Source: Actinocrinis puniceicyclus
GTDB taxonomy: Bacteria > Actinomycetota > Actinomycetes > Streptomycetales > Catenulisporaceae
Assembly (NCBI RefSeq): GCF_018283645.1
Contig: NZ_JAGSXH010000041.1
Span: 1-49,466 of the forward strand
DNA: 49,466 bases
Direction of reading: 5' to 3'
The first letter of the stretch is position 1. The number at the start of each line of letters is the position of its first letter. Position numbers and translations under genes: made by a program. The notes under the pieces are model-generated. The model saw nothing but the letters and a program-made list of their open reading frames with translations, was not told the DNA's origin and ran no database searches. This document shows positions 22,506-41,457 of the stretch, piece after piece.

Positions 22506-23342
22506 CTACCATGGCAACAAGGACAGCGCTTTGGCATCCTTGCGCATCAGCGCGGCGAAGTGGTCCACGATGCGACCGACGGCCGCCGGATCGTGGATCA
22601 CGACACCGATCTCCAAATTGTCGGTATGGGCGCTGTCGGTGAGGTTCGCGCTGCCGAGCATCGCTGCCGTCCGGTCGGCTGCGATGAATTTGGCGTGCAT
22701 CGCTCCGCGGCGTCCGCCGGGCCCGACTCGGCGCTCTGGATTCCACTGCCACAAATGGACGTCGGGATGGAACCGCAGGTCCCGGAAGGTGGCGCGACCA
22801 TCGGCTGAGCCGTGCAATAGACCGCCTGAGGCGACGGCCGTCTCGATGACCAGATCGACTCGGATACCGCGGTTGGCAGCAGCCATGATCTCGCGCTCGA
22901 TCTCGTGGACGCCGAACGCCGCGTAGCTGACGATGAGGAGCGTCCGCTTCGCGGCACGGATGACGTCGACCGCGACCGACGCGGTCAATCGGACGGGGAC
23001 AGCGTCGGTAACTGGTCCCGAGACGGCCACGTCGACTCGACTCATCGCAATGTCATGCTCGTAGCGGGTTCCTGCCGAGTCGAGGGCAAGTGCCACTGCC
23101 TGTCCTGAGGGCAGCGGGTCAGTCGCCATCCACGCGGCCAGCAGCAGCGTTGCGCGTGGACCAAGCCCCGCTCCTGGGTGCGCTGCAATCAGTCTGGATG
23201 CAGTCAGGTCGTCGGGCGTCGTGATTGTTTGAAGAACCCTGATCCAGGCGGCGCGATACGTCGTTGGCAGGTCAGCCGCCAGCGACGCGATAGCAGCCGC
23301 GAGCGACGGTGGGTTTCCCGCCTTAGCGCCGGAGATAGTCAC
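22506..23342 (-). CDS. drmC: DISARM phospholipase-D-like protein DrmC
   Basis: A 278-residue PLD-superfamily protein, last gene of the DISARM operon. One HKD-type motif is clear: His216-x-Lys218-x4-Asp223 in AMHAKFIAADR, followed by GSANLTDSA at 230-238. A strand-helix unit at 134-170 (KRTLLIVSYAAF, IMAAANRGIRVDLVIE) is the normal PLD core. DrmC is the nuclease-like accessory of DISARM, a phage-defence system that distinguishes methylated self DNA; its contribution is reported as less essential than DrmA/DrmB. A single HKD motif implies dimerisation for activity. The GTG start overlaps the drmB stop (GTGA). Confidence 0.92.
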   Translation of the reverse strand: MTISGAKAGNPPSLAAAIASLAADLPTTYRAAWIRVLQTITTPDDLTASRLIAAHPGAGLGPRATLLLAAWMATDPLPSGQAVALALDSAGTRYEHDIAMSRVDVAVSGPVTDAVPVRLTASVAVDVIRAAKRTLLIVSYAAFGVHEIEREIMAAANRGIRVDLVIETAVASGGLLHGSADGRATFRDLRFHPDVHLWQWNPERRVGPGGRRGAMHAKFIAADRTAAMLGSANLTDSAHTDNLEIGVVIHDPAAVGRIVDHFAALMRKDAKALSLLPW

Positions 23343-28200: not shown

Positions 28201-28719
28201 GCGCACGACAACCTTCTTATCGTCGGCAGAAAGCTCAACCGGTGCGATAGATCCTTCCACGAGCTTGACGGCAGTGCCGCCCGAGTGCGGTTTGCGTATC
28301 CAAACGGGTCGGTTGATGGTCGGGTCGCTCGATTCTCCGCGCACATAGCGTCCCCACTTGGCGCCCACCTCAAGCTGGTCGGCGTCGCCGCGTACACGGG
28401 CGGTGAACCCGATCGAGGACGGACTAAGGCTCGGCACATTCGGCGCGTTCGCGTCGAGCGAGCCCTCGTCGGCCGCCGGAGCCTCGGTGTCCCCCAAGGT
28501 GGCGTCCTGCTCTTCGGGAATGATCGCAGTGCCGTTGGGCGCCAGTCGTCCTAGTACGTACCAATCGGTAGGGGAATCAGGGACTTCCTCGGTCTCGCCC
28601 CCCACCGGTCCCAGTAAATCCTTGACGACCAGGTCAGCGAGCTCGTCGCGTACCTCCCCCGCGCTGGGCACGGTCAGAATGGGGTCCGCGGCGCTCATGG
28701 ACAGCAGGTCGTCGCTCAT
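25207..28719 (-). CDS. drmA: DISARM helicase DrmA
   Basis: A 1170-residue superfamily-2 helicase. Walker A is FPTGGGKTEAYLGL near 464-477, the DExH box QDELHLISGPLGSL near 721, and the C-terminal lobe has LLATNMIAVGVDVSRLGVMV and the arginine motif QATSRVGRA near 962. The first 450 residues have no ATPase motif and fit the N-terminal region of DrmA. With DrmB it forms the ATP-dependent core of DISARM. The ATG start overlaps the stop of the phosphoribosyltransferase gene (ATGA), linking it directly to the inserted DprA/PRTase genes. Codon 988 (25756-25758) is TTA in the stretch encoding RDLSHYE. Confidence 0.93.
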   Translation of the reverse strand: MSDDLLSMSAADPILTVPSAGEVRDELADLVVKDLLGPVGGETEEVPDSPTDWYVLGRLAPNGTAIIPEEQDATLGDTEAPAADEGSLDANAPNVPSLSPSSIGFTARVRGDADQLEVGAKWGRYVRGESSDPTINRPVWIRKPHSGGTAVKLVEGSIAPVELSADDKKVVVRGRVRRYEGDWLVTLFLVNTTEADSSAASQWVFQAELWATGANGAAAFLPRHTPGSGGDANDRAEQQTLAMAYRFSPEFAVGHGSGVRATAADGNPMVALEVRSMTVPWYDVPQTDAPSYKDDADLPELADLLTDMKLLAESSAAELRTSLLPLVEGYRAWIERAAARIGQDGQHLGDYEDEARDALDEARIAANRIEEGIDLLADDDALAAFRFANSAMHLQRIHTRAAARRRRDNALDIAEVVGQEDTPENRSWRPFQLAFLLLNLPALTAPAHPERATGPDAYADLLWFPTGGGKTEAYLGLTAYTLAIRRRRPDLGGYDASNGVAVLMRYTLRLLTIQQFQRAAALICACEELRRRDEQQWGSVPFRIGLWVGGKVSPNTTDDAQAWVADERRAGGRPSRRAGSPYQLPNCPWCGTRIEKGRDIDVDPIARRTFTRCPDLLSCPFGGADPGGEGLPVVVVDEEIYRLLPALVIATVDKFAQLAWNGRTQALFGRAVQHCSRHGYVTPQIADEEWEARSHQAQGRHPAAATTPAAAVRPPDLIVQDELHLISGPLGSLTGLYEAAVDRLATWEFAPGRSARPKVIASTATVRRAGRQIHALFDRRTHVFPPQGLEVGDNFFARQRPTSTHPGRRYVGICAQGVRTKSTMIRVYVAVLGAAQKLHEKYGRHPVTDPFMTLVGYFNSLRELGGMRRSVEDDVSTRLGRIAERGLTARYDPRLEELTSRLTSDKIPDILEQLERTFPAGRGTPKPIDVLLATNMIAVGVDVSRLGVMVVANQPKSSAEYIQATSRVGRAAPGLVFTVFNWARPRDLSHYETFEHFHTTAYRHVEALSVTPFAERAIDRGLTGVLVSLARNLESDDNGNLGAQTFDTRGRTADHIVRYLERRAGDVATERAIATRVREELDSLLSLWAREQRRPASRLAFDVKRSTDDIVCLLHRPDSGAWRRTTCPTSLREVEPGIRLVLKASPGQSHDDDEHPYIPRPDGGSEGDGS

Positions 28720-29516
28720 GGGTCACCACGATAGGGCGCGGTGGGGACAACCGGGCGTTTCCACGGCCCTGCGGTGTGGACACAGCACTGGTCCCAGGAG
28801 AAGCCGGCACTTCGCGCTGCCTTCAGATATTTGGAGTTATCGCGGAAGGAGGGATCGAAGTGCCTGCCGATCACGACGACTGCGACGCGTGTCGCTCCGG
28901 CCTGTTTCAGGGTCCAGGCAGCACTCTGCGCGTGCCCGCCCTGTGTCCAGGTGTCGTCGATCAACAGGACTGCGGCATCGGTGACGTCCACATCCTCATT
29001 GGGCAGAAAGCGGTCGGGATGCACGCCGCGATCCGGAGGAAGCTCGGGGTTCGATATGAGAAGGTCGGCGTACCGATCACGGGTTGGGCCGACGATCTTG
29101 CCTACGATCTCTCGCAATGGATGGTCATCACGTCCGCTTGTGCTGGGCACCACCGTGACGTAGTCGAACTGGGGTACTCCCGCACTGTCCGCGACGCAGG
29201 CCTCGTGGCCATCGAGAAAGCGCCAGAGCACGGCGGCGAGGCGTAGCTGCAGCACTGCGCGAGCGTGCTGGTCATACTGGTTCTTGTAGCGCCAGAGCTC
29301 TGTCGCGAGTTGCTCGCCCTTAACTGCGATGCTGATCGGTACGACGACGTCAGCGAGCTGCGCACCGGCGGTCTTGGCCGCCTCGTTGCATGGGTAGCAC
29401 CGCGGGTAGGTCCCAGATACCGCAGTCCGGCATACGGCACATGCACCTGTCCCAGCCTTCAGCGGGTGGATCAGGAAGCTTCCGTACGGCTCGGTGAGCT
29501 CTGCGACTGTAGCCAT
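28716..29516 (-). CDS. ComF-like phosphoribosyltransferase-domain protein
   Basis: A 266-residue protein. A four-cysteine zinc ribbon lies at Cys26, Cys29, Cys40 and Cys43 (CAVC and CYPC), like the N-terminus of ComF/ComFC. The remainder is a PRT fold; the PRPP-loop position reads VLLIDDTWTQGGHAQSAAW, a modified form of the VLLVDDVxTTGxT consensus that keeps the paired aspartates. Type I PRTases use PRPP, but ComF-type proteins often act in DNA handling rather than nucleotide salvage, and ComF is reported to contact DprA in transformation. Here it lies eight bases after a DprA-like gene and overlaps drmA (ATGA), so it is likely to act with them. Confidence 0.82.
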   Translation of the reverse strand: MATVAELTEPYGSFLIHPLKAGTGACAVCRTAVSGTYPRCYPCNEAAKTAGAQLADVVVPISIAVKGEQLATELWRYKNQYDQHARAVLQLRLAAVLWRFLDGHEACVADSAGVPQFDYVTVVPSTSGRDDHPLREIVGKIVGPTRDRYADLLISNPELPPDRGVHPDRFLPNEDVDVTDAAVLLIDDTWTQGGHAQSAAWTLKQAGATRVAVVVIGRHFDPSFRDNSKYLKAARSAGFSWDQCCVHTAGPWKRPVVPTAPYRGDP

Positions 29517-29524
29517 GAATCAGA

Positions 29525-30415
29525 TCAGGCCCAGGTCAGCTCGTCCGTCACGACGGGCCGGAGGCTCTCAAGCTCGTCGAAGACCTGCTGCGCGTTGTCG
29601 ATCACCGTGGTGTTCGGGCGACTCGCATAGTTGCGAGCCCATTCATGTTCGAGGAGTGAGCGCATGAGGAAGACGTGGCGGCCATGTTCCAGTGCGAGGC
29701 GGGCTTGCATGCGGGCACCGCTCCGTTCCAGCGCTTCGATCACCACCGTTGCTAGACAGTATCCGCTCATAATTGCGTTGCGCATCGGAAAGCTGTGCTT
29801 GGTGGGCGGTGCGTCCGGCCAGAATTGTGAGAGCACCAGCCCTTCGTTGGCGATTTGATGTTGAAGGCCGGCGTTCTGCGCAGGATAGGAGCGACGCAAC
29901 CCGGTCCCGATCACGGCAACTGTTCGCCCACCGACGGCGAGGGCCGCGGTGTGCGCCGCCGTGTCGATTCCTTGCGCTAGTCCGCTAGCGACCGTTACAC
30001 CACGCTCAGCGAGTCCCCGAGCAATCTCTGTCGCGTAGTAAACCCCTCGGTCACTTGGGTGCCTCGTACCGACGACTGCGACCGACAGTTCGTCATCGGT
30101 CACAGCTCCGCGAGCGAAGAGGAACGGGGGCTGCTGGTGGACGAGGCGCAGGTTAAGTGGATAGTCCGGATCGAGAACCGTCAGCAGACGCATGCCTTCG
30201 CTCTGCCAGGCACGGACGTCATTGATCGCCGCATCGAGCTCCTTCGAGTCATTCTGGACTTCGAAGAGCGCTTCCTGCCTATCCTCGCCAAGCCCCTCCT
30301 TCATCAGCGCAAGGGCCGAGCCCTTCGCGGCGATCTGCTCGGCGATCTCGGGCCAAGGCGCGCCGCCGCGTCGCACCAGCGCGACCACCGCTGCCTGCTC
30401 CTCGACGCTGATCAT
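29525..30415 (-). CDS. DprA/Smf-like Rossmann (SLOG superfamily) protein
   Basis: A 296-residue DprA-like protein. The Rossmann core is intact: VAVVGTRHPSDRGVYYATEI, VTVASGLAQGIDTAAHTAAL, GGRTVAVIGTGL and YPAQNAGL, then ATVVIEALERSGA. An N-terminal helical stretch of about 85 residues precedes it; no C-terminal winged helix (DML1 domain) is evident. DprA binds single-stranded DNA and loads RecA during transformation; related SLOG proteins bind nucleotide ligands in conflict systems. In a DISARM operon it may sense or protect single-stranded DNA, or bind a signal; this is inference. The promoter at 30422-30449 would give a leaderless transcript from this ATG. Confidence 0.88.
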   Translation of the reverse strand: MISVEEQAAVVALVRRGGAPWPEIAEQIAAKGSALALMKEGLGEDRQEALFEVQNDSKELDAAINDVRAWQSEGMRLLTVLDPDYPLNLRLVHQQPPFLFARGAVTDDELSVAVVGTRHPSDRGVYYATEIARGLAERGVTVASGLAQGIDTAAHTAALAVGGRTVAVIGTGLRRSYPAQNAGLQHQIANEGLVLSQFWPDAPPTKHSFPMRNAIMSGYCLATVVIEALERSGARMQARLALEHGRHVFLMRSLLEHEWARNYASRPNTTVIDNAQQVFDELESLRPVVTDELTWA

Positions 30416-30421
30416 AGGACC

Positions 30422-30449
30422 ACCCTACATCGAACAAATTTTCTGTCAC
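30422..30449 (-). promoter_or_regulatory. Predicted leaderless promoter for the dprA-like gene
   Basis: On the minus strand GTGACA (30449-30444, five of six matches to TTGACA) is followed by 16 bases and TAGGGT (30427-30422), a good actinobacterial -10 box. Six more bases lead to the ATG of the dprA-like gene, so transcription would begin at the start codon. The 107-base gap around it is the largest inside the DISARM operon. Confidence 0.45.
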
Positions 30450-30522
30450 TGTGAGTTCAACGACAACTAGCGGACTTGCTTACAGTGCACGGAGTGTCTA
30501 CCTGGAGAGTTCAACCTTCAAG

Positions 30523-32022
30523 CTAGAGGCCCAGTTGCCATCGGATGCTCTGCCGCTTCTGCTCAGCGAAGGAGTTCTGCCACGAGTCCCCGGCTGGTGG
30601 AAGACAATCCTGTGGTGCCAGGTGCACGCCTGGCATCTTGTCGACCGGCACAGTCTTCATGATCAGGTTGAGCAGCGCAATGACCGCTGGCAACGCCGCT
30701 TCAACAAAGCGTTGGGGATCGACGTAGGAGGCGTACTGGATCTCCTGCTTGACACCCCAATGGGCCCGCCCGCCCGTCGCGTCCATCGCGGTGACGATGT
30801 CCTGCGCTTCGCCTGGTGGCAGGCGGACCAGCGGCTCCTGTGAACCATCGCCAGACTGGTGCATCGCTCCCTGAAGCACCTCGGCATGAACCGTGTTGCG
30901 CATCGCGGTCAAGATCTTCAGTACATGCGCCTGATGGCCGCCAGGCTGGACGAGGTCGGCCACCGACTGGTTGGCCCTCGCGACGTCCCGAAGCCAGCCA
31001 GAGCGCTGCCAACCTGCGTTGCTCGACCTGCCTGAGACTCCAAGCACGTCGTGAGCGACACGAGCTGTGACGTCGATCGCTCCCATGCACCCAACCAGCA
31101 GTTCGTCGAGCGCTGTAATCACTTCACTCACGGCATTGTTGCCGTGGTAGGACTGCAGCGAGATGTTCAGCTCATCCCGCTTGATCAATGCTCTCCGAAT
31201 GCGCTCAATAGCCGAAAGAGCCAAACCCTGGAGCTCGTCATTCTTGATCTGTCCAAATGCTGCGCCCCACCGCCACACCTCCGGCAACAGCTCACGAGCG
31301 CCCACCCAGAAATACCCGAGCTTACTGCCCACGAGTGGGAATGTTCCTGACGGCGACTGGATCAGCACGTACTGACTCTGTGCTCTCAAGTAGAGCCCGA
31401 CAAGCGCTAATGCATCGGCTAGCGAGCAAACAGTCACTCCGTGCTGCTTGCTTACAGAGTTCTCGAACAGGTAAGGACGCTCGGTAATGAAGAGGTCGGC
31501 CTGCACACACTCAGCGGCCAGCACGGCAATGGCATCGGCCTCACGGCGACGACGGGCCTCGTCGGAAGGCAACGAACGGTAGGCGGTCGAGCTAACGTCC
31601 CGCTCAGCGGCTTCTACTCGGTTACCAGTAATTCCCGTGTACGTAAAAGAATGAGGTGAATTTGTATATATGATATTGCGCACCTGGTGTGCCGCCTGGA
31701 CATCAGCGAGCACCCAGCCAAGCGGATGTTTTGCGCCATTGGGAAACACATGCCACGGCACGTTTCCCGGGGGACCATCGTCGGCGTATCGATAAAGCGT
31801 GACGAAGTTGTGTGTAAGCAGACCGTTGAGCAGGTATTTTGGAGACCACGGGTCGCTGTCCACTGCGTCTACTAGCTCGGCGTCTGCGACGACGGTAAGT
31901 CGCCGATAGGCCGGTCGCGCATCGAAGAGCCGAGCACCCCGTGAATCGACCGTGCCCAGGTCCGGCCAATCTGCCGCCTTCGAGGCGGCGTGCGAGGAAT
32001 CCTCGAACTTCAACAGCGCCAT
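30523..32022 (-). CDS. Unrecognised 499-residue protein inserted in the DISARM operon
   Basis: The family was not recognised. Visible features: residues 165-215 (AIAVLAAECVQADLFITERP, then GVTVCSLADALALVGLYLRA) resemble the alternating strand-helix end of PIN-like nucleases, where a D-x-x-[IL]-T element is common. Residues 362-385 (HVLKILTAMRNTVHAEVLQG) carry R375-N-T-V-H379, similar to R-x3-6-H elements of HEPN-like helical proteins. Both are only resemblances. The ATG has GAGGAG about ten bases upstream, and drmMI ends 19 bases before it. Codon 205 (31408-31410) is TTA, and the gene is strikingly AT-rich (21 G/C in the 60 bases 31621-31680). An RNase-like effector is one possible reading. 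Confidence 0.85.
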   Translation of the reverse strand: MALLKFEDSSHAASKAADWPDLGTVDSRGARLFDARPAYRRLTVVADAELVDAVDSDPWSPKYLLNGLLTHNFVTLYRYADDGPPGNVPWHVFPNGAKHPLGWVLADVQAAHQVRNIIYTNSPHSFTYTGITGNRVEAAERDVSSTAYRSLPSDEARRRREADAIAVLAAECVQADLFITERPYLFENSVSKQHGVTVCSLADALALVGLYLRAQSQYVLIQSPSGTFPLVGSKLGYFWVGARELLPEVWRWGAAFGQIKNDELQGLALSAIERIRRALIKRDELNISLQSYHGNNAVSEVITALDELLVGCMGAIDVTARVAHDVLGVSGRSSNAGWQRSGWLRDVARANQSVADLVQPGGHQAHVLKILTAMRNTVHAEVLQGAMHQSGDGSQEPLVRLPPGEAQDIVTAMDATGGRAHWGVKQEIQYASYVDPQRFVEAALPAVIALLNLIMKTVPVDKMPGVHLAPQDCLPPAGDSWQNSFAEQKRQSIRWQLGL

Positions 32023-32041: not shown

Positions 32042-35000
32042 TCAGAACAGGGAGTCTTCCTGAGGGCCAGAGTTCTTCTTCCCACCTTTACTGTGCAGGC
32101 CGCGGCGGACCTCGTCCTCATAGCGGGCGTGGTTGAGTTCGAGGAGGCGGTCGTTCATCTCAACCTGGATGTCGGGGTCAACGGTCCATCGCAGACCGTG
32201 GGTTGTCTCGTGGAAGCCGTAGTTCAGATCGAGCGGTGTCCAGTTGAAGTGCTTGGCGAGGGGGTCTAGGAGGTATGCCTCCGAGACGGCTTCGTCAATC
32301 TCGACGTGGATCTCACGCAGACGTTGAATGGCGGCATCTTGATTGATCCGGTTATGGACCTCGTTGTAGAGATCGGTCATGCCAAGATCGCAATCAAGCT
32401 GGACCTTACGGCGGAAGTCATCGAGGGCTTCACCAGCCATATTGATGCGCGGTGTCAACTCTGGCCGTGCAAATGTGTCGAATCCATCGGAAGGGGTGTA
32501 GCGAAGTCGATCCTCGAGTGTCGACTCGCCCTTAACCGTCCACCAGTTGAAGTGCCACGTGCTCGTGAGCAGCGCGAGCTGTCCCATCTGGTCTGGGTCG
32601 CAGAAGACGACTAGTGAATCGGAATATACTTGCCCATTCGGAACGAGACACGGCAACCCATACTTGCTATGGCGGCCGATGACTAAGACCCGAGGGAACT
32701 CTGCGATCGCTTTGCGCAACTCTGGGCGCCTGCGATGGTGTTGCCACCAACGTGAAGCTGCACGGTTCCTGTCGTCTTGAGACGGTTGGACTCTCCTCTC
32801 TAGAAGAGAGAAGACGTCAGGAAATTCTTTGGCTGCGTCGATGGACATATCGTTAAAGTCAATCGCGAACTCGTCTCCTGAGCAGTTAGGGTTGCTGTTG
32901 ACATTATCATTAATCAGATATGGGAGTACGACCCTCCTATTTTTACTGTCCGCCGCAAAGAGTTCGTGGGCCTGTGCGGCGTCAATCACAAATGTTGAGC
33001 GCACTTGGTATCCATTAGGAGCTTTTCCTGCATTGGCAGCTAGCCCATGAGGCGCACCTGGCACGCGCGTAGGCCTAGTCAAGTTGGAGGAGATAGACTC
33101 GACCACTTTGCCATCAAGGATAGTTTTCTCGCCAGTGCCTTGTTTCCCCAACCATACTAGCGATACATATACGCTTGCTACGCCAGGCCAGGGTTGAGAT
33201 TTGGTTGCCCGAAAAATTCTCCAGCCGCGAGCAGCGATCCGGTCAAGGCCCACTTCTTTCGAATCATTCTGCGCGATCGTATTGACTGCAATGATTCCAG
33301 TACGCTGCGCTGGGGCAATTTTAAGATTGCGTAATAAGAAATACGTGCACAGGTCGGCCCGACCTCCAGATGTGAAGCCATTGGCGACCACCTGGCCGAT
33401 GTAGCTCAGCCTGTCCTTACCAATTCTGCCGCCGATATCGGTACCCGCGATGAACGGTGGGTTGCTGACAACGGCGTCAAAGCGGTGCTCGCCTCGGCGC
33501 GGGTCGGCGACGATCTCTGGGAATTCGAGTGGCCAGTGCAGCGGGCGCAGTGGGGCTTCGCGCGGGCGTTCACGTGGGCCGCGAAGCCAGCCATCGATGA
33601 TCCTCCGCGCCGCGGTCTCCGCGCCTACATCCCCCCCTAGCGCCTTCTCAACGAGATCCGCGATAGAGGCGAGGCGGTCATTATAGGCGTCTGCTGACTT
33701 GAGCGATGCAGTAGAGAGCTTTGCACCCACGACGGCATCCGCAGAGAGTCGCAGTCGCTCAGTCAGCGCGTCGGCCTCCTCAAGCTTTGCAGCCTTCTCG
33801 CGTGCGTCGCGAATGTCGAAGACTTCGTGCTCTTCGATCTGGCGACGAAGCTCAGCTGCGCGCAACAACAGCGGCCCAGTGACTTTGTCGATCTCGCCGG
33901 ACAGCCGGTGGTTCAGCCTGCGGCCTTCGGCGGGCTTCAGGTGGAACGCCTCGATCTGTTCGGATGTGAGGCACCCGATTAGCGAGTCGCCACAGCGTAA
34001 TGCGTGGTCTACGAAGTTGAAAGGCCGGCCCTTCGCGAGCGTTACGATCCACAATGAGAGCTTCGCGAGCTCGACAGCCATCTCGTCGATATCGACCCCG
34101 TACAGGCATCGATCTGCCACCATGCGGCGCGCCTCCAGCAGGCGCGCGTCGTGATCGTCACGCTGGTCGCCGAGCCGGTCGTCGATCGCGCGTGGCAAGC
34201 CGTCTCGGTCCCATGCCTCAACGACGCGTTCAGACAGATACCGGCAGGCGGAGACAAGGAACGCGCCCGAACCCATTGCCGGGTCCAGAACCTTGAGCGC
34301 GAGTAGTTCCTCGGCCGGGCGCACGGACCATTCAGTTGGCTGCGTTCCGTCCGCGTTCCGCGGAAGACCATCCGGGGAGCCGGGCGAGAAGCACAGCGGA
34401 TCGAGCGTGTGTACCACGATCTCTTCGGCGAGTGCTCGGGGTGTGTAGTGCGTCCCCGTATCGCGGCGGTCTCCCACCTGCGCGATGATTACCGTTCCGG
34501 CCGGGTGCACGATCGGTTCGCCGCGAAGATCGACGCGCAGCAACCCGAAATACGGTAGGACGCGGGCTGCAATTTCCGCCTTGTTGTCGCAGGCCGCGTC
34601 GAGCATCGCAGTATCGGCGCCGGTCGGCTGGATCGCAAGCGCCCTGGCGTATTGCGGTGCTGTCAATCCGGCGAGCGCACGAACTTCCGTGTCAAGTTTG
34701 CCAGCGACTTGCCACGCTTCTAGGGCGGCCAGGCTGGCTTCGGCCTGCTTCTTGCCCTTGAGCGCGAGGTGGGTCTCGTCGAGCCGGACCGCAGAGTATT
34801 CGAGTAGGCCCTCGTAGACGTGCCCGATCTGCTCGACGTCCAAGCCCTTGTACGACAATCGCTCCGTCGACGTGACGGTATCCCCGTTGGTCCGCTTCAG
34901 TTTGATGAGCGCGTCGAGAATTGCGAACACGACCCGGTCGGTGATCGCAACGCTCTCCAGCCAGGGAAATCGGGTCGGGTCGAAGAGCGAACCTCCGTAG

Positions 35001-36103
35001 GCGGGGATCCACATGTCCGGGTGCCGCGCGCCGCCGTGTACGGCGCGGAAGGTGGCCAGCAGTGCTGGCCAGGCGGCCTGCCAGCGGTCGGCGATGGCGC
35101 CGTCGCCTAGGTCTAGTCGTTCGTACAGATTCATGATCGAATAGGAGTCCGCATACAGTTCGTCCCCGAGCGGCAGGAGGTTCTGCTCCTCCGCATACAG
35201 CAGGAACACCACGCGCATCATGACGGTCAGCGCGCCTCGGTAGATGGTGCGCGGCTCGACGCCCGCGAGCATCTGGCCATATGAATCCCGGTCAAGACGG
35301 GAGAGTTCCGCGACCAGCAGTTGGACGGCTTCGCGGACCTGGCGCCCGAGGGTCTTGGTGACGCTGGTGGTGTCTTCGGCGGTCTTGGCGAAGAGCGCGG
35401 CGAGCGAGTCTGTGTCCGTGCCGTCGCGATTTCTCGGGGAAGCGGCGGCATGCCTACTGCCGAGCAATGAGACGAACGCGCGTAGGATCATCGGCTCGTC
35501 GAACCATGTGTCAGCGTCGAACTCGGCGACCGTGGCCGGCTCCTTCGAGCGGGCATGCACGAGGGTCCACAGTCGGCCGTTGGTGAGCAGCGCAATCGGG
35601 ATGGCGCGGCGTCGGCACAGCTGCGCGGCCTGCTCTGCGAGCGACGGCAGGCCCTTGGCGGCGCGGGTCAGTGACTCGTTCCAGGGGCGGCGGTAGATCA
35701 GTGCCCGTTCGGCCAGTCCGGACATACCCGTGGCCGGGTCGGCCGGCCCCATGAGGACCGCGTCGGGAGCCGTTCCGCCGTCTGCGTTGGCACCGGCGGT
35801 GAGTTCCCGGGGAAGCATCGAGCCTTGGCGAAGCGCCTGGCCTCGGTAGCCAAGCACTTCGTCGAGAACCAGGTGCTGCCAAGCGCGGTTCAGCGTCGCC
35901 GGGTCAGCCTCAAGCTCCGCCCACGCCTGCCGCAGCCGAGTACGCAATGGCGTCTCGACGGTGTCGAGACCCTGTGGGAAAGCGTCCGCGAGGAATTTCG
36001 CGGAGATGAAGGGGCCGTCAGGGCGCAGTAGGTTCAGCCACTCGGCGTGCTGGTCGATGGTGTTCTGCAGCGTCGACACGGTGGCGCGGGCGCGCGGGGG
36101 CAT
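32042..36103 (-). CDS. drmMI: DISARM class 1 adenine-specific DNA methyltransferase DrmMI
   Basis: A 1353-residue Eco57I-type N6-adenine methyltransferase. The SAM-binding motif LKVLDPAMGSGAFLVSACRY is near residue 608, preceded by GTHYTPRALAEEIV; the catalytic NPPF motif is at 881-884 in AVVSNPPFIAGTDIGG. Large N-terminal (about 550 residues) and C-terminal (about 420 residues) regions flank the core, as in BREX/DISARM-type enzymes, and probably read DNA sequence. It marks host DNA so that DISARM spares it. TGATG overlap with drmD. Codons 923-924 (33332-33337) are two consecutive TTA codons in the stretch encoding TYFLLRN, and the surrounding 32600-33400 is AT-rich. Confidence 0.93.
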   Translation of the reverse strand: MPPRARATVSTLQNTIDQHAEWLNLLRPDGPFISAKFLADAFPQGLDTVETPLRTRLRQAWAELEADPATLNRAWQHLVLDEVLGYRGQALRQGSMLPRELTAGANADGGTAPDAVLMGPADPATGMSGLAERALIYRRPWNESLTRAAKGLPSLAEQAAQLCRRRAIPIALLTNGRLWTLVHARSKEPATVAEFDADTWFDEPMILRAFVSLLGSRHAAASPRNRDGTDTDSLAALFAKTAEDTTSVTKTLGRQVREAVQLLVAELSRLDRDSYGQMLAGVEPRTIYRGALTVMMRVVFLLYAEEQNLLPLGDELYADSYSIMNLYERLDLGDGAIADRWQAAWPALLATFRAVHGGARHPDMWIPAYGGSLFDPTRFPWLESVAITDRVVFAILDALIKLKRTNGDTVTSTERLSYKGLDVEQIGHVYEGLLEYSAVRLDETHLALKGKKQAEASLAALEAWQVAGKLDTEVRALAGLTAPQYARALAIQPTGADTAMLDAACDNKAEIAARVLPYFGLLRVDLRGEPIVHPAGTVIIAQVGDRRDTGTHYTPRALAEEIVVHTLDPLCFSPGSPDGLPRNADGTQPTEWSVRPAEELLALKVLDPAMGSGAFLVSACRYLSERVVEAWDRDGLPRAIDDRLGDQRDDHDARLLEARRMVADRCLYGVDIDEMAVELAKLSLWIVTLAKGRPFNFVDHALRCGDSLIGCLTSEQIEAFHLKPAEGRRLNHRLSGEIDKVTGPLLLRAAELRRQIEEHEVFDIRDAREKAAKLEEADALTERLRLSADAVVGAKLSTASLKSADAYNDRLASIADLVEKALGGDVGAETAARRIIDGWLRGPRERPREAPLRPLHWPLEFPEIVADPRRGEHRFDAVVSNPPFIAGTDIGGRIGKDRLSYIGQVVANGFTSGGRADLCTYFLLRNLKIAPAQRTGIIAVNTIAQNDSKEVGLDRIAARGWRIFRATKSQPWPGVASVYVSLVWLGKQGTGEKTILDGKVVESISSNLTRPTRVPGAPHGLAANAGKAPNGYQVRSTFVIDAAQAHELFAADSKNRRVVLPYLINDNVNSNPNCSGDEFAIDFNDMSIDAAKEFPDVFSLLERRVQPSQDDRNRAASRWWQHHRRRPELRKAIAEFPRVLVIGRHSKYGLPCLVPNGQVYSDSLVVFCDPDQMGQLALLTSTWHFNWWTVKGESTLEDRLRYTPSDGFDTFARPELTPRINMAGEALDDFRRKVQLDCDLGMTDLYNEVHNRINQDAAIQRLREIHVEIDEAVSEAYLLDPLAKHFNWTPLDLNYGFHETTHGLRWTVDPDIQVEMNDRLLELNHARYEDEVRRGLHSKGGKKNSGPQEDSLF

Positions 36104-39381: not shown

Positions 39382-41457
39382 TCAGGACATCTTTTCACTT
39401 ATTGACTCGTCACCCAGGTCAAGCAACGCCGCGAGCGCAGGCGCAGAGAGTCGCTGCTTCGGCTCGGCGGCGTCGTTGCCGTTGAAGCGCACACCCTCGT
39501 CACGCAGGATGTCCAGGACGTTCCCACGATCCTCACCCATCCACCGGAACCCGGGAGACACCCTGCCGTCGGACGTCAGGACACGATGCGCATTCGCGAC
39601 ACCGGTCGTCTGGGCAAGGTGGGCTCCGACGGGCTGCGCGGCCGAGCCGATAAGCGCGGCCAGATCGCCGTAACTGGTCCATGCACCAGGTGGCAAGATC
39701 GCGAGCGCCTGATGCAGCAGCGACCAGTCACGCCCGCGCTCTACCCGCCCAACTCCGGCGACCGGCGAGGGCCACAGGATCGAGGCGGTTTGCGCCAGGA
39801 CCTTGGCCCGCTGCTCGATCTCGGTGGCGCCCCAGCGGGGTGCTTCCGCAATCCGCCGGTTCATCTCCAGATGACTGGCCTTGAACAGGTCCTGCTTGCG
39901 CTGGAAGGGATGGTTGGACAACTCGCTGTTCTGTGCCGTCAGGGTCAGGTTGCCGAGTGTGTGCACCAGCCTGCGGTGGGTCTCAGCCGGCGTCTCCCCA
40001 TCGATTGCATCCTCGGCGAGAACTGCGAGCCACTCCTTGCTCGCCCCCTGCGGAAGCACATGCTCGACGGTCAGCTTCGCCGTCACGAAGTCCACCGGCT
40101 CCGGGTGGTCGTAGGACTCCTCCAGGCGGCGCAGCACGAACTGCCGCTGGTGGCCGCGGCCGTACAGGTAGAACGGCTTTGTGCGGATCGCGTCGAGCAG
40201 TTCCGCGTCGTCCGGCCATGAACGCCGCTCACCCGAGAGCACCTTGCGCACGCCCTCATCCACCAGCATGTCGGCAGGCAGTTGACCTGGCAGGTCCTGG
40301 AAAATCCGGTTGAGGCCGTTGGGCGGCACCCGGCAGATCATCCGGCGCACCAGGAAGCTCTCGATGTACGTGAGCGCCTTCGCTACCTGCTCGCTGGTTG
40401 CCTCGCCACGCTCCCGGCGATCCAGCAACAACATGATCGCGGGCGCAGGAGTGTCCGCGTCCCATGCACGGAGGCGCCAGAGCGCGCCGCGCACCGCGGC
40501 GTCGGATTCACGATTCGGATCGATCAGCGTCAGGTAGTGTACGGAACGCCTGCGCAGTTCTCGGACCCAATCCTCGTATGTGTCTTCGGTGTCGGGTTGC
40601 TGTTCGAATCGAACTTGCCGTTCCCGGTACACGTCCTGGCGCCGCACCCGGTTGGCTCCTGAGAGGATGAGTTCGAGCCAGATCAGGTCTTCAAGCAGCT
40701 TCGGATCGTTCACGCTCTTCTGGAGCGGAGTCCACAGTGTCTCGTAAACATGCTCGCCACGGGTGGGCAGGTGCATGAACACGTAGTTGCGCACGAGGTC
40801 GGTCTGGCTAAGTTCGAGGCCAGTATTATTGAGTGACTGGAAGATCCGATAGACGTTGTCCCCCGTGCCTGCGGCGATCTCGACGAGCGTGAGGCGCGAT
40901 GTGATCGCTTCCTCAATGTGCTGGATCGAGTGCGTGTCTGCAGGGTCCTCAGTGGCGGCGAGCGCTGCGCGGAAGAAGCGATAGGCGGCGCCGACTCGGG
41001 AATCGTCGTCGAGCGCGGCTATACCGTTGATGTGCGCGGAGTACACGGCGCGGTCGACCTGGGTCGGGACCAGGCGCAATAGGTTAGATCCCTGGGTACG
41101 GGAGTTGACAAGGAAGCGGTTCGAGATGTCGTGGGCCCACGCGGCGTCAGCCTTTGCGACATGGTCTCGGATAGCGGCGAGAGCCAGCGAGAGCGTGGTG
41201 AGCCGCTGCTGGCCATCGACGACCAGCGCATGTGGAAAGCCCATCGAATGCTGTGGTGAGGGCGCGTGCACCACGGAACCGAGGAAGTGGGCAGAGCCCG
41301 CGGAGCCCTCTGCAATGAGGTCAGCCTGTTCAAGAATGTCGCTCCAGAGCTGGGTGAGCTGCTGCTCCTTCCACGAGTACGGACGCTGGAATAGCGGCAC
41401 CTGGAACTGCTTCTTGCCTTCCAGCAGCCCGGCCAAGGTTGTTTCGCCCGCGCGCAT
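39382..41457 (-). CDS. GmrSD-like DUF262-DUF1524 (HNH) protein fused to an alkyltransferase-like domain
   Basis: A 691-residue fusion. DUF262: VPLFQRPYSW at 20-29 and DGQQRLTTL at 81-89, the ParB-like nucleotide-binding signature of type IV GmrS-type proteins. DUF1524/HNH: VEHVLPQ near 461-467 and HTLGNLTLTAQN near 500-511, the His-Asn nuclease core. C-terminal MGMT-like domain from about 575: PPGAWTSYGDLAALIGSA, then ANAHRVLTSDGRVSPGFRW. At the position of the PCHRV acceptor cysteine it reads NAHRV, so the domain can bind but not repair alkylguanine, as in alkyltransferase-like proteins. GmrSD-type enzymes cut modified DNA. It is three bases before drmD, so it is the first gene of the operon. 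Confidence 0.9.
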   Translation of the reverse strand: MRAGETTLAGLLEGKKQFQVPLFQRPYSWKEQQLTQLWSDILEQADLIAEGSAGSAHFLGSVVHAPSPQHSMGFPHALVVDGQQRLTTLSLALAAIRDHVAKADAAWAHDISNRFLVNSRTQGSNLLRLVPTQVDRAVYSAHINGIAALDDDSRVGAAYRFFRAALAATEDPADTHSIQHIEEAITSRLTLVEIAAGTGDNVYRIFQSLNNTGLELSQTDLVRNYVFMHLPTRGEHVYETLWTPLQKSVNDPKLLEDLIWLELILSGANRVRRQDVYRERQVRFEQQPDTEDTYEDWVRELRRRSVHYLTLIDPNRESDAAVRGALWRLRAWDADTPAPAIMLLLDRRERGEATSEQVAKALTYIESFLVRRMICRVPPNGLNRIFQDLPGQLPADMLVDEGVRKVLSGERRSWPDDAELLDAIRTKPFYLYGRGHQRQFVLRRLEESYDHPEPVDFVTAKLTVEHVLPQGASKEWLAVLAEDAIDGETPAETHRRLVHTLGNLTLTAQNSELSNHPFQRKQDLFKASHLEMNRRIAEAPRWGATEIEQRAKVLAQTASILWPSPVAGVGRVERGRDWSLLHQALAILPPGAWTSYGDLAALIGSAAQPVGAHLAQTTGVANAHRVLTSDGRVSPGFRWMGEDRGNVLDILRDEGVRFNGNDAAEPKQRLSAPALAALLDLGDESISEKMS

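What the first reader, a model, noticed from the sequence alone, without database searches (positions are those of the whole stretch)
28716..30415. DprA-ComF pair recruited from competence to defence
DprA binds incoming single-stranded DNA and ComF works with DprA in transformation. Finding both back to back inside DISARM, with the PRTase coupled to drmA by an ATGA overlap, suggests a module that handles single-stranded phage DNA or degradation products, or one that binds or makes a nucleotide signal. The DprA-like protein has no evident C-terminal winged helix and the PRPP loop is altered.
Basis: partly seen in the sequence, partly recalled or inferred. Interest (0 to 1): 0.8.

Follow-up and report, generated by a model that had tools for sequence, protein, structure and literature searches.

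The report
ShosTA-like defence pair nested in DISARM
Two neighbouring genes inside a bacterial anti-phage operon (DISARM) turn out to be a relative of a known two-gene, phage- and plasmid-borne toxin-antitoxin defence module (ShosTA), not competence genes newly recruited to DISARM; the unusual part is that the module is wired into the DISARM operon.

Summary
A DprA-like gene (30415-29525) and a ComF-like zinc-finger phosphoribosyltransferase (PRTase) gene (29516-28716) lie back to back in a complete class 1 DISARM operon. The PRTase stop overlaps the drmA start as ATGA. The DprA-like protein has no C-terminal winged helix.

The pair is a relative of the known ShosTA / "DprA-PRTase" defence module. 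The PRTase model matches solved ShosT best (Z 10.8), then Helicobacter ComF (Z 9.2). Close DprA-PRTase pairs stand alone in about 5% of sampled genomes of the class and on Gordonia phages, and 67 of 80 DprA-like loci on viral contigs have a PRTase neighbour. The DprA falls outside a supported clade of 30 chromosomal DprAs, and the host keeps its own dprA and comF elsewhere.

The DISARM link is not recurrent: none of 31 other DISARM loci carries the pair inside the operon, and the nearest relative pair follows a Type ISP restriction gene. I read it as a toxin-antitoxin/abortive module nested in DISARM: PRTase as toxic effector, DprA-like protein as ssDNA-binding antitoxin or sensor (inferred). 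A new variant of a known kind, of moderate interest.

The parts
29525..30415 (-). DprA/SMF-like protein, 296 aa: N-terminal helices plus Rossmann (SLOG-type) domain, no winged helix; candidate antitoxin / ssDNA sensor (ShosA-like)
   Evidence: Pfam DNA_processg_A 5.6e-61; PADLOC ShosA 1.5e-63; below the NCBIfam dprA cut-off; tree outside canonical DprAs; AF2 pLDDT 90.8, Z 28.5 to ShosA 8zva, 33.0 and 29.7 to DprAs 3maj and 3uqz
28716..29516 (-). ComF-like zinc-finger phosphoribosyltransferase, 266 aa; candidate toxic effector (ShosT-like)
   Evidence: PADLOC ShosT 1e-7; hhalign to ComF 172 columns, 95.1%; AF2 model best matches ShosT 8zvd/8zvc Z 10.8/10.7 and ComF 7p0h Z 9.2
29388..29441 (-). 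Four-cysteine zinc-finger motif of the PRTase (C26, C29, C40, C43)
   Evidence: Invariant in all 18 relatives
28932..28970 (-). PRPP loop VLLIDDTWTQGGH (residues 183-195); relatives read DDTWTTGxxxQSAA
28716..28719 (-). ATGA overlap of the PRTase stop and drmA start
   Evidence: read from sequence
30416..30522 (-). 107-bp gap upstream of the pair with two copies of a 9-nt direct repeat (GTTGAACTC, at 30515-30507 and 30461-30453); possible own regulatory region
   Evidence: 55 of 5000 shuffles have such a repeat; no sigma-70 consensus found
30523..32022 (-). Unknown 499-aa protein between drmMI and the pair; relatives in 6 of 395 genomes of the class; invariant D47, D176, R375-N376-x-x-H379
32042..36103 (-). 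drmMI (DISARM adenine methyltransferase)
   Evidence: PADLOC 1392.6 bits
36103..39378 (-). drmD (DISARM SNF2-like helicase)
   Evidence: NCBIfam NF038317, 1257 bits
25207..28719 (-). drmA (DISARM helicase)
   Evidence: NCBIfam NF038325, 1324 bits
23339..25210 (-). drmB
   Evidence: PADLOC 4.5e-76
22506..23342 (-). drmC (phospholipase D-like nuclease)
   Evidence: PADLOC 4.5e-97
39382..41457 (-). GmrSD-like (DUF262/DUF1524) protein with a C-terminal alkyltransferase-like domain at the head of the operon
   Evidence: Pfam GmrSD_N/C and DNA_binding_1

Best explanation
The pair is a ShosTA-like (DprA-PRTase) toxin-antitoxin / abortive-infection module, of a subfamily seen here mainly in actinomycetes and their phages, that has been nested in a class 1 DISARM operon between the modification genes (drmD, drmMI) and the helicase-nuclease genes (drmA, drmB, drmC). 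Shown: gene identities, operon layout, folds, free-standing and phage-borne relatives, absence from other DISARM operons. Inferred: the PRTase is the effector that uses PRPP and upsets the purine nucleotide pool; the DprA-like protein binds ssDNA and holds it in check; infection that shuts off host expression, or loads the antitoxin with ssDNA, frees the PRTase and stops the cell. In this operon it would act as a second line behind DISARM, and translation coupling to drmA keeps both at matched levels.
For: PADLOC names the two genes ShosA (1.5e-63) and ShosT (1e-7). The best structural matches of the PRTase model are ShosT with phosphate or PRPP-Mg (Z 10.8, 10.7), above H. pylori ComF (Z 9.2). 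The DprA model matches ShosA 8zva over 276 residues, Z 28.5, close to true DprAs. Conserved adjacent DprA-PRTase pairs occur across the class and phylum, on phages Vasanti, Bosnia, Mana and Riah and on actinobacterial plasmids; 67 of 80 viral-contig DprA-like loci have a PRTase neighbour. The P2-type pair, whose PRTase is the solved ShosT, is of the type shown to protect against T7 and lambda (PMC9122126). A review of Pu et al. 2025 gives ShosT as PRTase and pyrophosphatase perturbing purines, ShosA as DNA-binding antitoxin (PMC12593503). The PRTase domain of the related RqlH is toxic and is curbed by DprA-like RqlI, independently of the RqlI HTH domain (PMC4670107), which fits the missing winged helix. 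R118 is kept throughout the family, and a basic residue at 206 in all but one relative.
Against: Sequence similarity of the PRTase to E. coli ShosT is confined to the PRPP loop (47 columns, 77%), and it lacks ShosT's N-terminal extension of about 150 residues, carrying a ComF-type zinc finger instead. E. coli ShosA does not group with the window clade in a quick tree (long branch). The PADLOC ShosA model also hits the host's ordinary DprA (8.2e-47), so that hit alone proves little. Four of five lysines of the pneumococcal ssDNA patch are not kept. Nothing about toxicity or phage defence was measured. The DISARM placement is a single case.
Confidence: 0.66

Rival explanations
1. The pair has become a working part of this DISARM system: it binds or processes the ssDNA and DNA fragments made by DrmAB/DrmC, or supplies a nucleotide signal, and DISARM needs it.
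For: Same-strand, tightly packed operon with ATGA coupling to drmA. DrmAB is activated by ssDNA or 5' overhangs (PMC9142583), and DprA and ComFC both bind ssDNA (PMC4066776; PMC9005727). Two other pairs adjoin restriction-modification genes: behind a Type ISP enzyme (L127) and beside genes that look like a Type I system (L293, read by eye).
Against: 31 other DISARM loci lack the pair in the operon, including the host's own second DISARM; co-occurrence of pair and DISARM in genomes is no more than weakly above chance (6 against 3.2 expected, P 0.09).
Confidence: 0.14
2. One reading: competence genes dprA and comF were recruited from the host's transformation machinery into DISARM.
For: The PRTase is truly ComF-like in architecture; ComFC from Campylobacter and pneumococcus interacts with DprA (PMC9005727).
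Against: The DprA falls outside a clade of 30 chromosomal DprAs that includes the host's own (SH-aLRT 97). Host dprA and comF are present elsewhere. Pairs sit on phages and plasmids.
Confidence: 0.05
3. Chance hitch-hiking: the pair dropped into a DISARM cargo slot and acts only as an addiction module or selfish cargo, with no role in phage defence.
For: The drmMI-drmA junction is interrupted by unrelated genes in about half of the loci where both ends are seen; some cargo matches candidate defence families. Pairs are mobile.
Against: In-frame overlap and short spacings suggest selection for co-expression; related pairs have measured anti-phage activity (PMC9122126).
Confidence: 0.15

Closest known systems
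ShosTA / P2-hotspot DprA-PRTase system (E. coli; PDB 8zva-8zvd, 9vzo, 9w2p)
   Same: Adjacent DprA-like and PRTase genes; DprA first in the P2-type locus; PRTase fold match Z 10.8 to ShosT; changed PRPP loop also in ShosT (DDFCTEGNA); carried by phages
   Different: Window PRTase is 266 aa with a four-Cys zinc finger, ShosT is 424 aa with another N-terminal region; sequence similarity limited to the PRPP loop; nested in DISARM
RqlHI / PsyrTA
   Same: PRTase toxicity curbed by a DprA-like partner; weak PADLOC PsyrT hit, clear PsyrA hit
   Different: In RqlH the PRTase is fused to a RecQ-like helicase; here it stands alone
ComFC (competence PRTase; PDB 7p0h)
   Same: Four-Cys zinc finger plus PRTase domain; 172-column profile match; Z 9.2
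   Different: DDTW-type PRPP loop without the last Thr; paired with a DprA from outside the chromosomal DprA clade; not in a competence locus
Class 1 DISARM
   Same: Complete drmD-drmMI...drmA-drmB-drmC set
   Different: Three extra genes between drmMI and drmA, among them the pair

Membership tests
ShosTA (DprA-PRTase toxin-antitoxin) | DprA/SMF-fold protein encoded next to a PRTase | tested here: met
ShosTA (DprA-PRTase toxin-antitoxin) | PRTase with ShosT fold | tested here: met
   Z 10.8, rmsd 3.9 over 181 residues, best of 997 chains aligned; model pLDDT 74
ShosTA (DprA-PRTase toxin-antitoxin) | ShosT sequence similarity over the whole domain | tested here: inconclusive
   PADLOC 30 bits; hhalign 47 columns only
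ShosTA (DprA-PRTase toxin-antitoxin) | N-terminal region of E. coli ShosT (about 150 residues) | tested here: not met
   Window PRTase starts with the zinc finger; it aligns to ShosT 154-405
ShosTA (DprA-PRTase toxin-antitoxin) | Toxicity of the PRTase and rescue by the DprA-like partner | not testable with these tools
   needs experiment
ComFC | Four-Cys zinc finger followed by PRTase | tested here: met
ComFC | Canonical PRPP loop DDxxTTGxT | tested here: not met
   DDTWTQGGH in the window, DDTWTTGxx in most relatives
ComFC | Match to NCBIfam comF (TIGR00201) | tested here: inconclusive
   No hit, but none of 30 sampled genomes of the class passes that cut-off either
Canonical DprA | Over the NCBIfam dprA cut-off (191.15 bits) | tested here: not met
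   184.2 bits; two of 30 sampled genomes' chromosomal DprAs also fall just short
Canonical DprA | Groups with chromosomal DprAs of its class | tested here: not met
   30 chromosomal DprAs form one side of a branch, SH-aLRT 97, window outside (quick tree)
DISARM class 1 | drmD, drmMI, drmA, drmB and drmC in one operon | tested here: met
DISARM class 1 | DprA-PRTase pair as a regular component | tested here: not met
   0 of 31 other DISARM loci in the operon; one (L105) has a pair about 3.6 kb beyond drmC, behind an opposite-strand gene

The most novel reading that the evidence does not exclude
The zinc-finger PRTase and DprA-like protein form a DISARM-integrated guard: they sense ssDNA or DNA fragments left when DISARM acts or fails and trigger cell shutdown, so that one operon holds both a direct and an abortive layer joined by translation coupling, perhaps with the unknown 499-aa protein as a further part.
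Probability: 0.14. Interest if true: 0.7.

Novelty: new variant of a known kind. Interest (0 to 1): 0.42.

Why it matters
It links an uncharacterised DprA-PRTase subfamily of actinomycetes to the recently solved ShosTA system, shows the module is common on phages, and gives a clear case of one defence module nested inside another operon. That makes the layering of direct and abortive defence testable in a single locus. It also warns that 'DprA' and 'ComF' labels in phage and plasmid genomes often mark this module rather than competence.

Tried and rejected
Recruitment from competence: rejected on the DprA tree and the separate host copies. Regular DISARM component: rejected on 31 other loci. 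Altered PRPP loop as a sign of a dead enzyme: not accepted, because ShosT, solved with PRPP-Mg, also lacks the last Thr (DDFCTEGNA), although ComFC T165A loses nucleotide binding (PMC9005727). Loss of the RecA-binding acidic triad: E235 and D243 of pneumococcal DprA are R239 and H247 here, but another DprA (3maj) also has Arg at the first site, so I draw nothing from it. The single-sequence scan of genome contigs found only one relative. The 499-aa gene: no Pfam, PADLOC or viral relatives; its PDB profile match to MoaE is weak (E 0.0019, 82 positions) and I do not trust it. A sigma-70 promoter scan found nothing. Complex prediction of the two proteins could not be run with the tools. Pu et al. 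2025, the main ShosTA paper, did not turn up in the held library; I used a review's summary.

Full report
What is there. On the minus strand the window holds a complete class 1 DISARM operon: a GmrSD-like gene, drmD, drmMI, then three extra genes, then drmA, drmB and drmC. The extra genes are an unknown 499-aa gene, a DprA-like gene (30415-29525) and a PRTase gene (29516-28716). The PRTase start lies 8 bp after the DprA stop, and its stop overlaps the drmA start as ATGA at 28719-28716, with GGTGA upstream.

The DprA-like protein. It hits Pfam DNA_processg_A at 5.6e-61 and falls just under the NCBIfam dprA cut-off (184.2 against 191.15). Its model (pLDDT 90.8, pTM 0.88) has N-terminal helices and a Rossmann domain, and ends there without a winged helix. 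It superposes on DprAs 3maj and 3uqz (Z 33.0, 29.7) and on ShosA 8zva (Z 28.5). Of the pneumococcal residues studied for ssDNA binding (PMC4066776), R115 and K202 have equivalents R118 and K206; R118 is invariant in the family and position 206 is basic in all but one relative. K119, K144, K175 and K225 have no basic equivalent in the window protein. ssDNA binding is therefore plausible but not shown.

The PRTase. No Pfam family is hit. A profile of 21 relatives aligns with actinobacterial ComF over 172 columns, zinc-finger cysteines included (95.1%, E 3.5e-8), and with E. coli ShosT only over the PRPP loop (47 columns, 77%). The model (pLDDT 74, pTM 0.80) matches ShosT with phosphate or PRPP-Mg best (Z 10.8, 10.7), then H. 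pylori ComF (Z 9.2), with ordinary PRTases below 8. The zinc-finger cysteines are invariant in 18 relatives; nearly all relatives read DDTW or DDSW in the PRPP loop. The window's TQG in place of TTG resembles ShosT's TEG.

Where the pair lives. A search of 395 genomes of the class found the PRTase in 20. In nearly all of them the DprA-like gene is adjacent, usually upstream, with close spacing or overlap. Relatives occur in other classes of the phylum and in Solirubrobacteraceae. They occur on Gordonia phages Vasanti and Bosnia near integrase and repressor genes, and on actinobacterial plasmids. More distant pairs are on phages Mana and Riah and on P2 4C9, whose PRTase is the solved ShosT. Of 80 viral-contig loci encoding a DprA-like relative, 67 have a ComF/PRTase-type neighbour. 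In a tree, 30 chromosomal DprAs, the host's own included, form one side of a branch (SH-aLRT 97), and the window protein sits among the actinobacterial pair DprAs (96). This was a quick tree; E. coli ShosA has a long branch and its place is unsure.

Is DISARM the home of the pair? No. Among 31 other DISARM loci none has it inside the operon; one genome has a pair about 3.6 kb beyond drmC, past an opposite-strand gene and from a different subclade. The host's second DISARM lacks it. Genome-level co-occurrence is weak (6 seen, 3.2 expected, P 0.09). The closest relative (same family, 70% identical DprA) lies 133 bp behind a Type ISP restriction-modification gene, and another lies beside genes that look like a Type I system (by eye). 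The drmMI-drmA junction is interrupted by other genes in roughly half of the loci where both ends are visible, including candidate defence genes. The window therefore looks like one case of a general cargo site, tidier than most because all cargo genes run with the operon.

How it most likely works. A pair of this type from a P2-like phage protects E. coli against T7 and lambda, and DprA homologues act as antitoxins in shosTA, syrTA and rqlHI (PMC9122126). ShosT is described as a PRTase and pyrophosphatase that upsets purines and leads to DNA duplications, filamentation and death, with ShosA as DNA-binding antitoxin (Pu et al. 2025, as reviewed in PMC12593503). [quoted passage not shown] By analogy the window PRTase is the effector and the DprA-like protein its antitoxin or sensor. 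DISARM's DrmAB is switched on by ssDNA and 5' overhangs (PMC9142583), so both layers could read the same signal; this last step is inference.

Verdict. The pair is a new zinc-finger variant of a known kind of defence module, nested in DISARM. Membership in ShosTA in the strict sense is open: fold and partner agree, the N-terminal region does not, and toxicity was not testable.

Noticed in passing
window 39382-41457: A GmrSD-like (DUF262/DUF1524) protein at the head of the DISARM operon carries a C-terminal alkyltransferase-like DNA-binding domain (Pfam DNA_binding_1, 2.3e-7), which struck me as an unusual fusion.
   Followed up: no
window 30523-32022: Unknown 499-aa protein with sparse relatives (6 of 395 genomes); invariant Asp47, Asp176 and an R-N-x-x-H motif hint at a PIN-like plus HEPN-like make-up, unproven.
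   Followed up: partly
drmMI-drmA junction, e.g. L079, L080, L083, L067, L068, L071, L085: In about half of the actinobacterial DISARM loci where both genes are seen, 3-10 kb of variable cargo separates drmMI from drmA, including PADLOC candidates PDC-M55ABC and PDC-M02B, a HipA-like gene and restriction-like genes.
   Followed up: partly
L087/L088 (own genome, contig C370): The host genome has a second class 1 DISARM, with drmMI directly before drmA and no DprA-PRTase pair.
   Followed up: no
L102 7963-11998: One locus holds two diverging DprA-PRTase pairs back to back.
   Followed up: no
L290 9366-10394, L291 9485-10420: PRTases close to this family in two genomes have no recognisable DprA-like neighbour.
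   Followed up: partly
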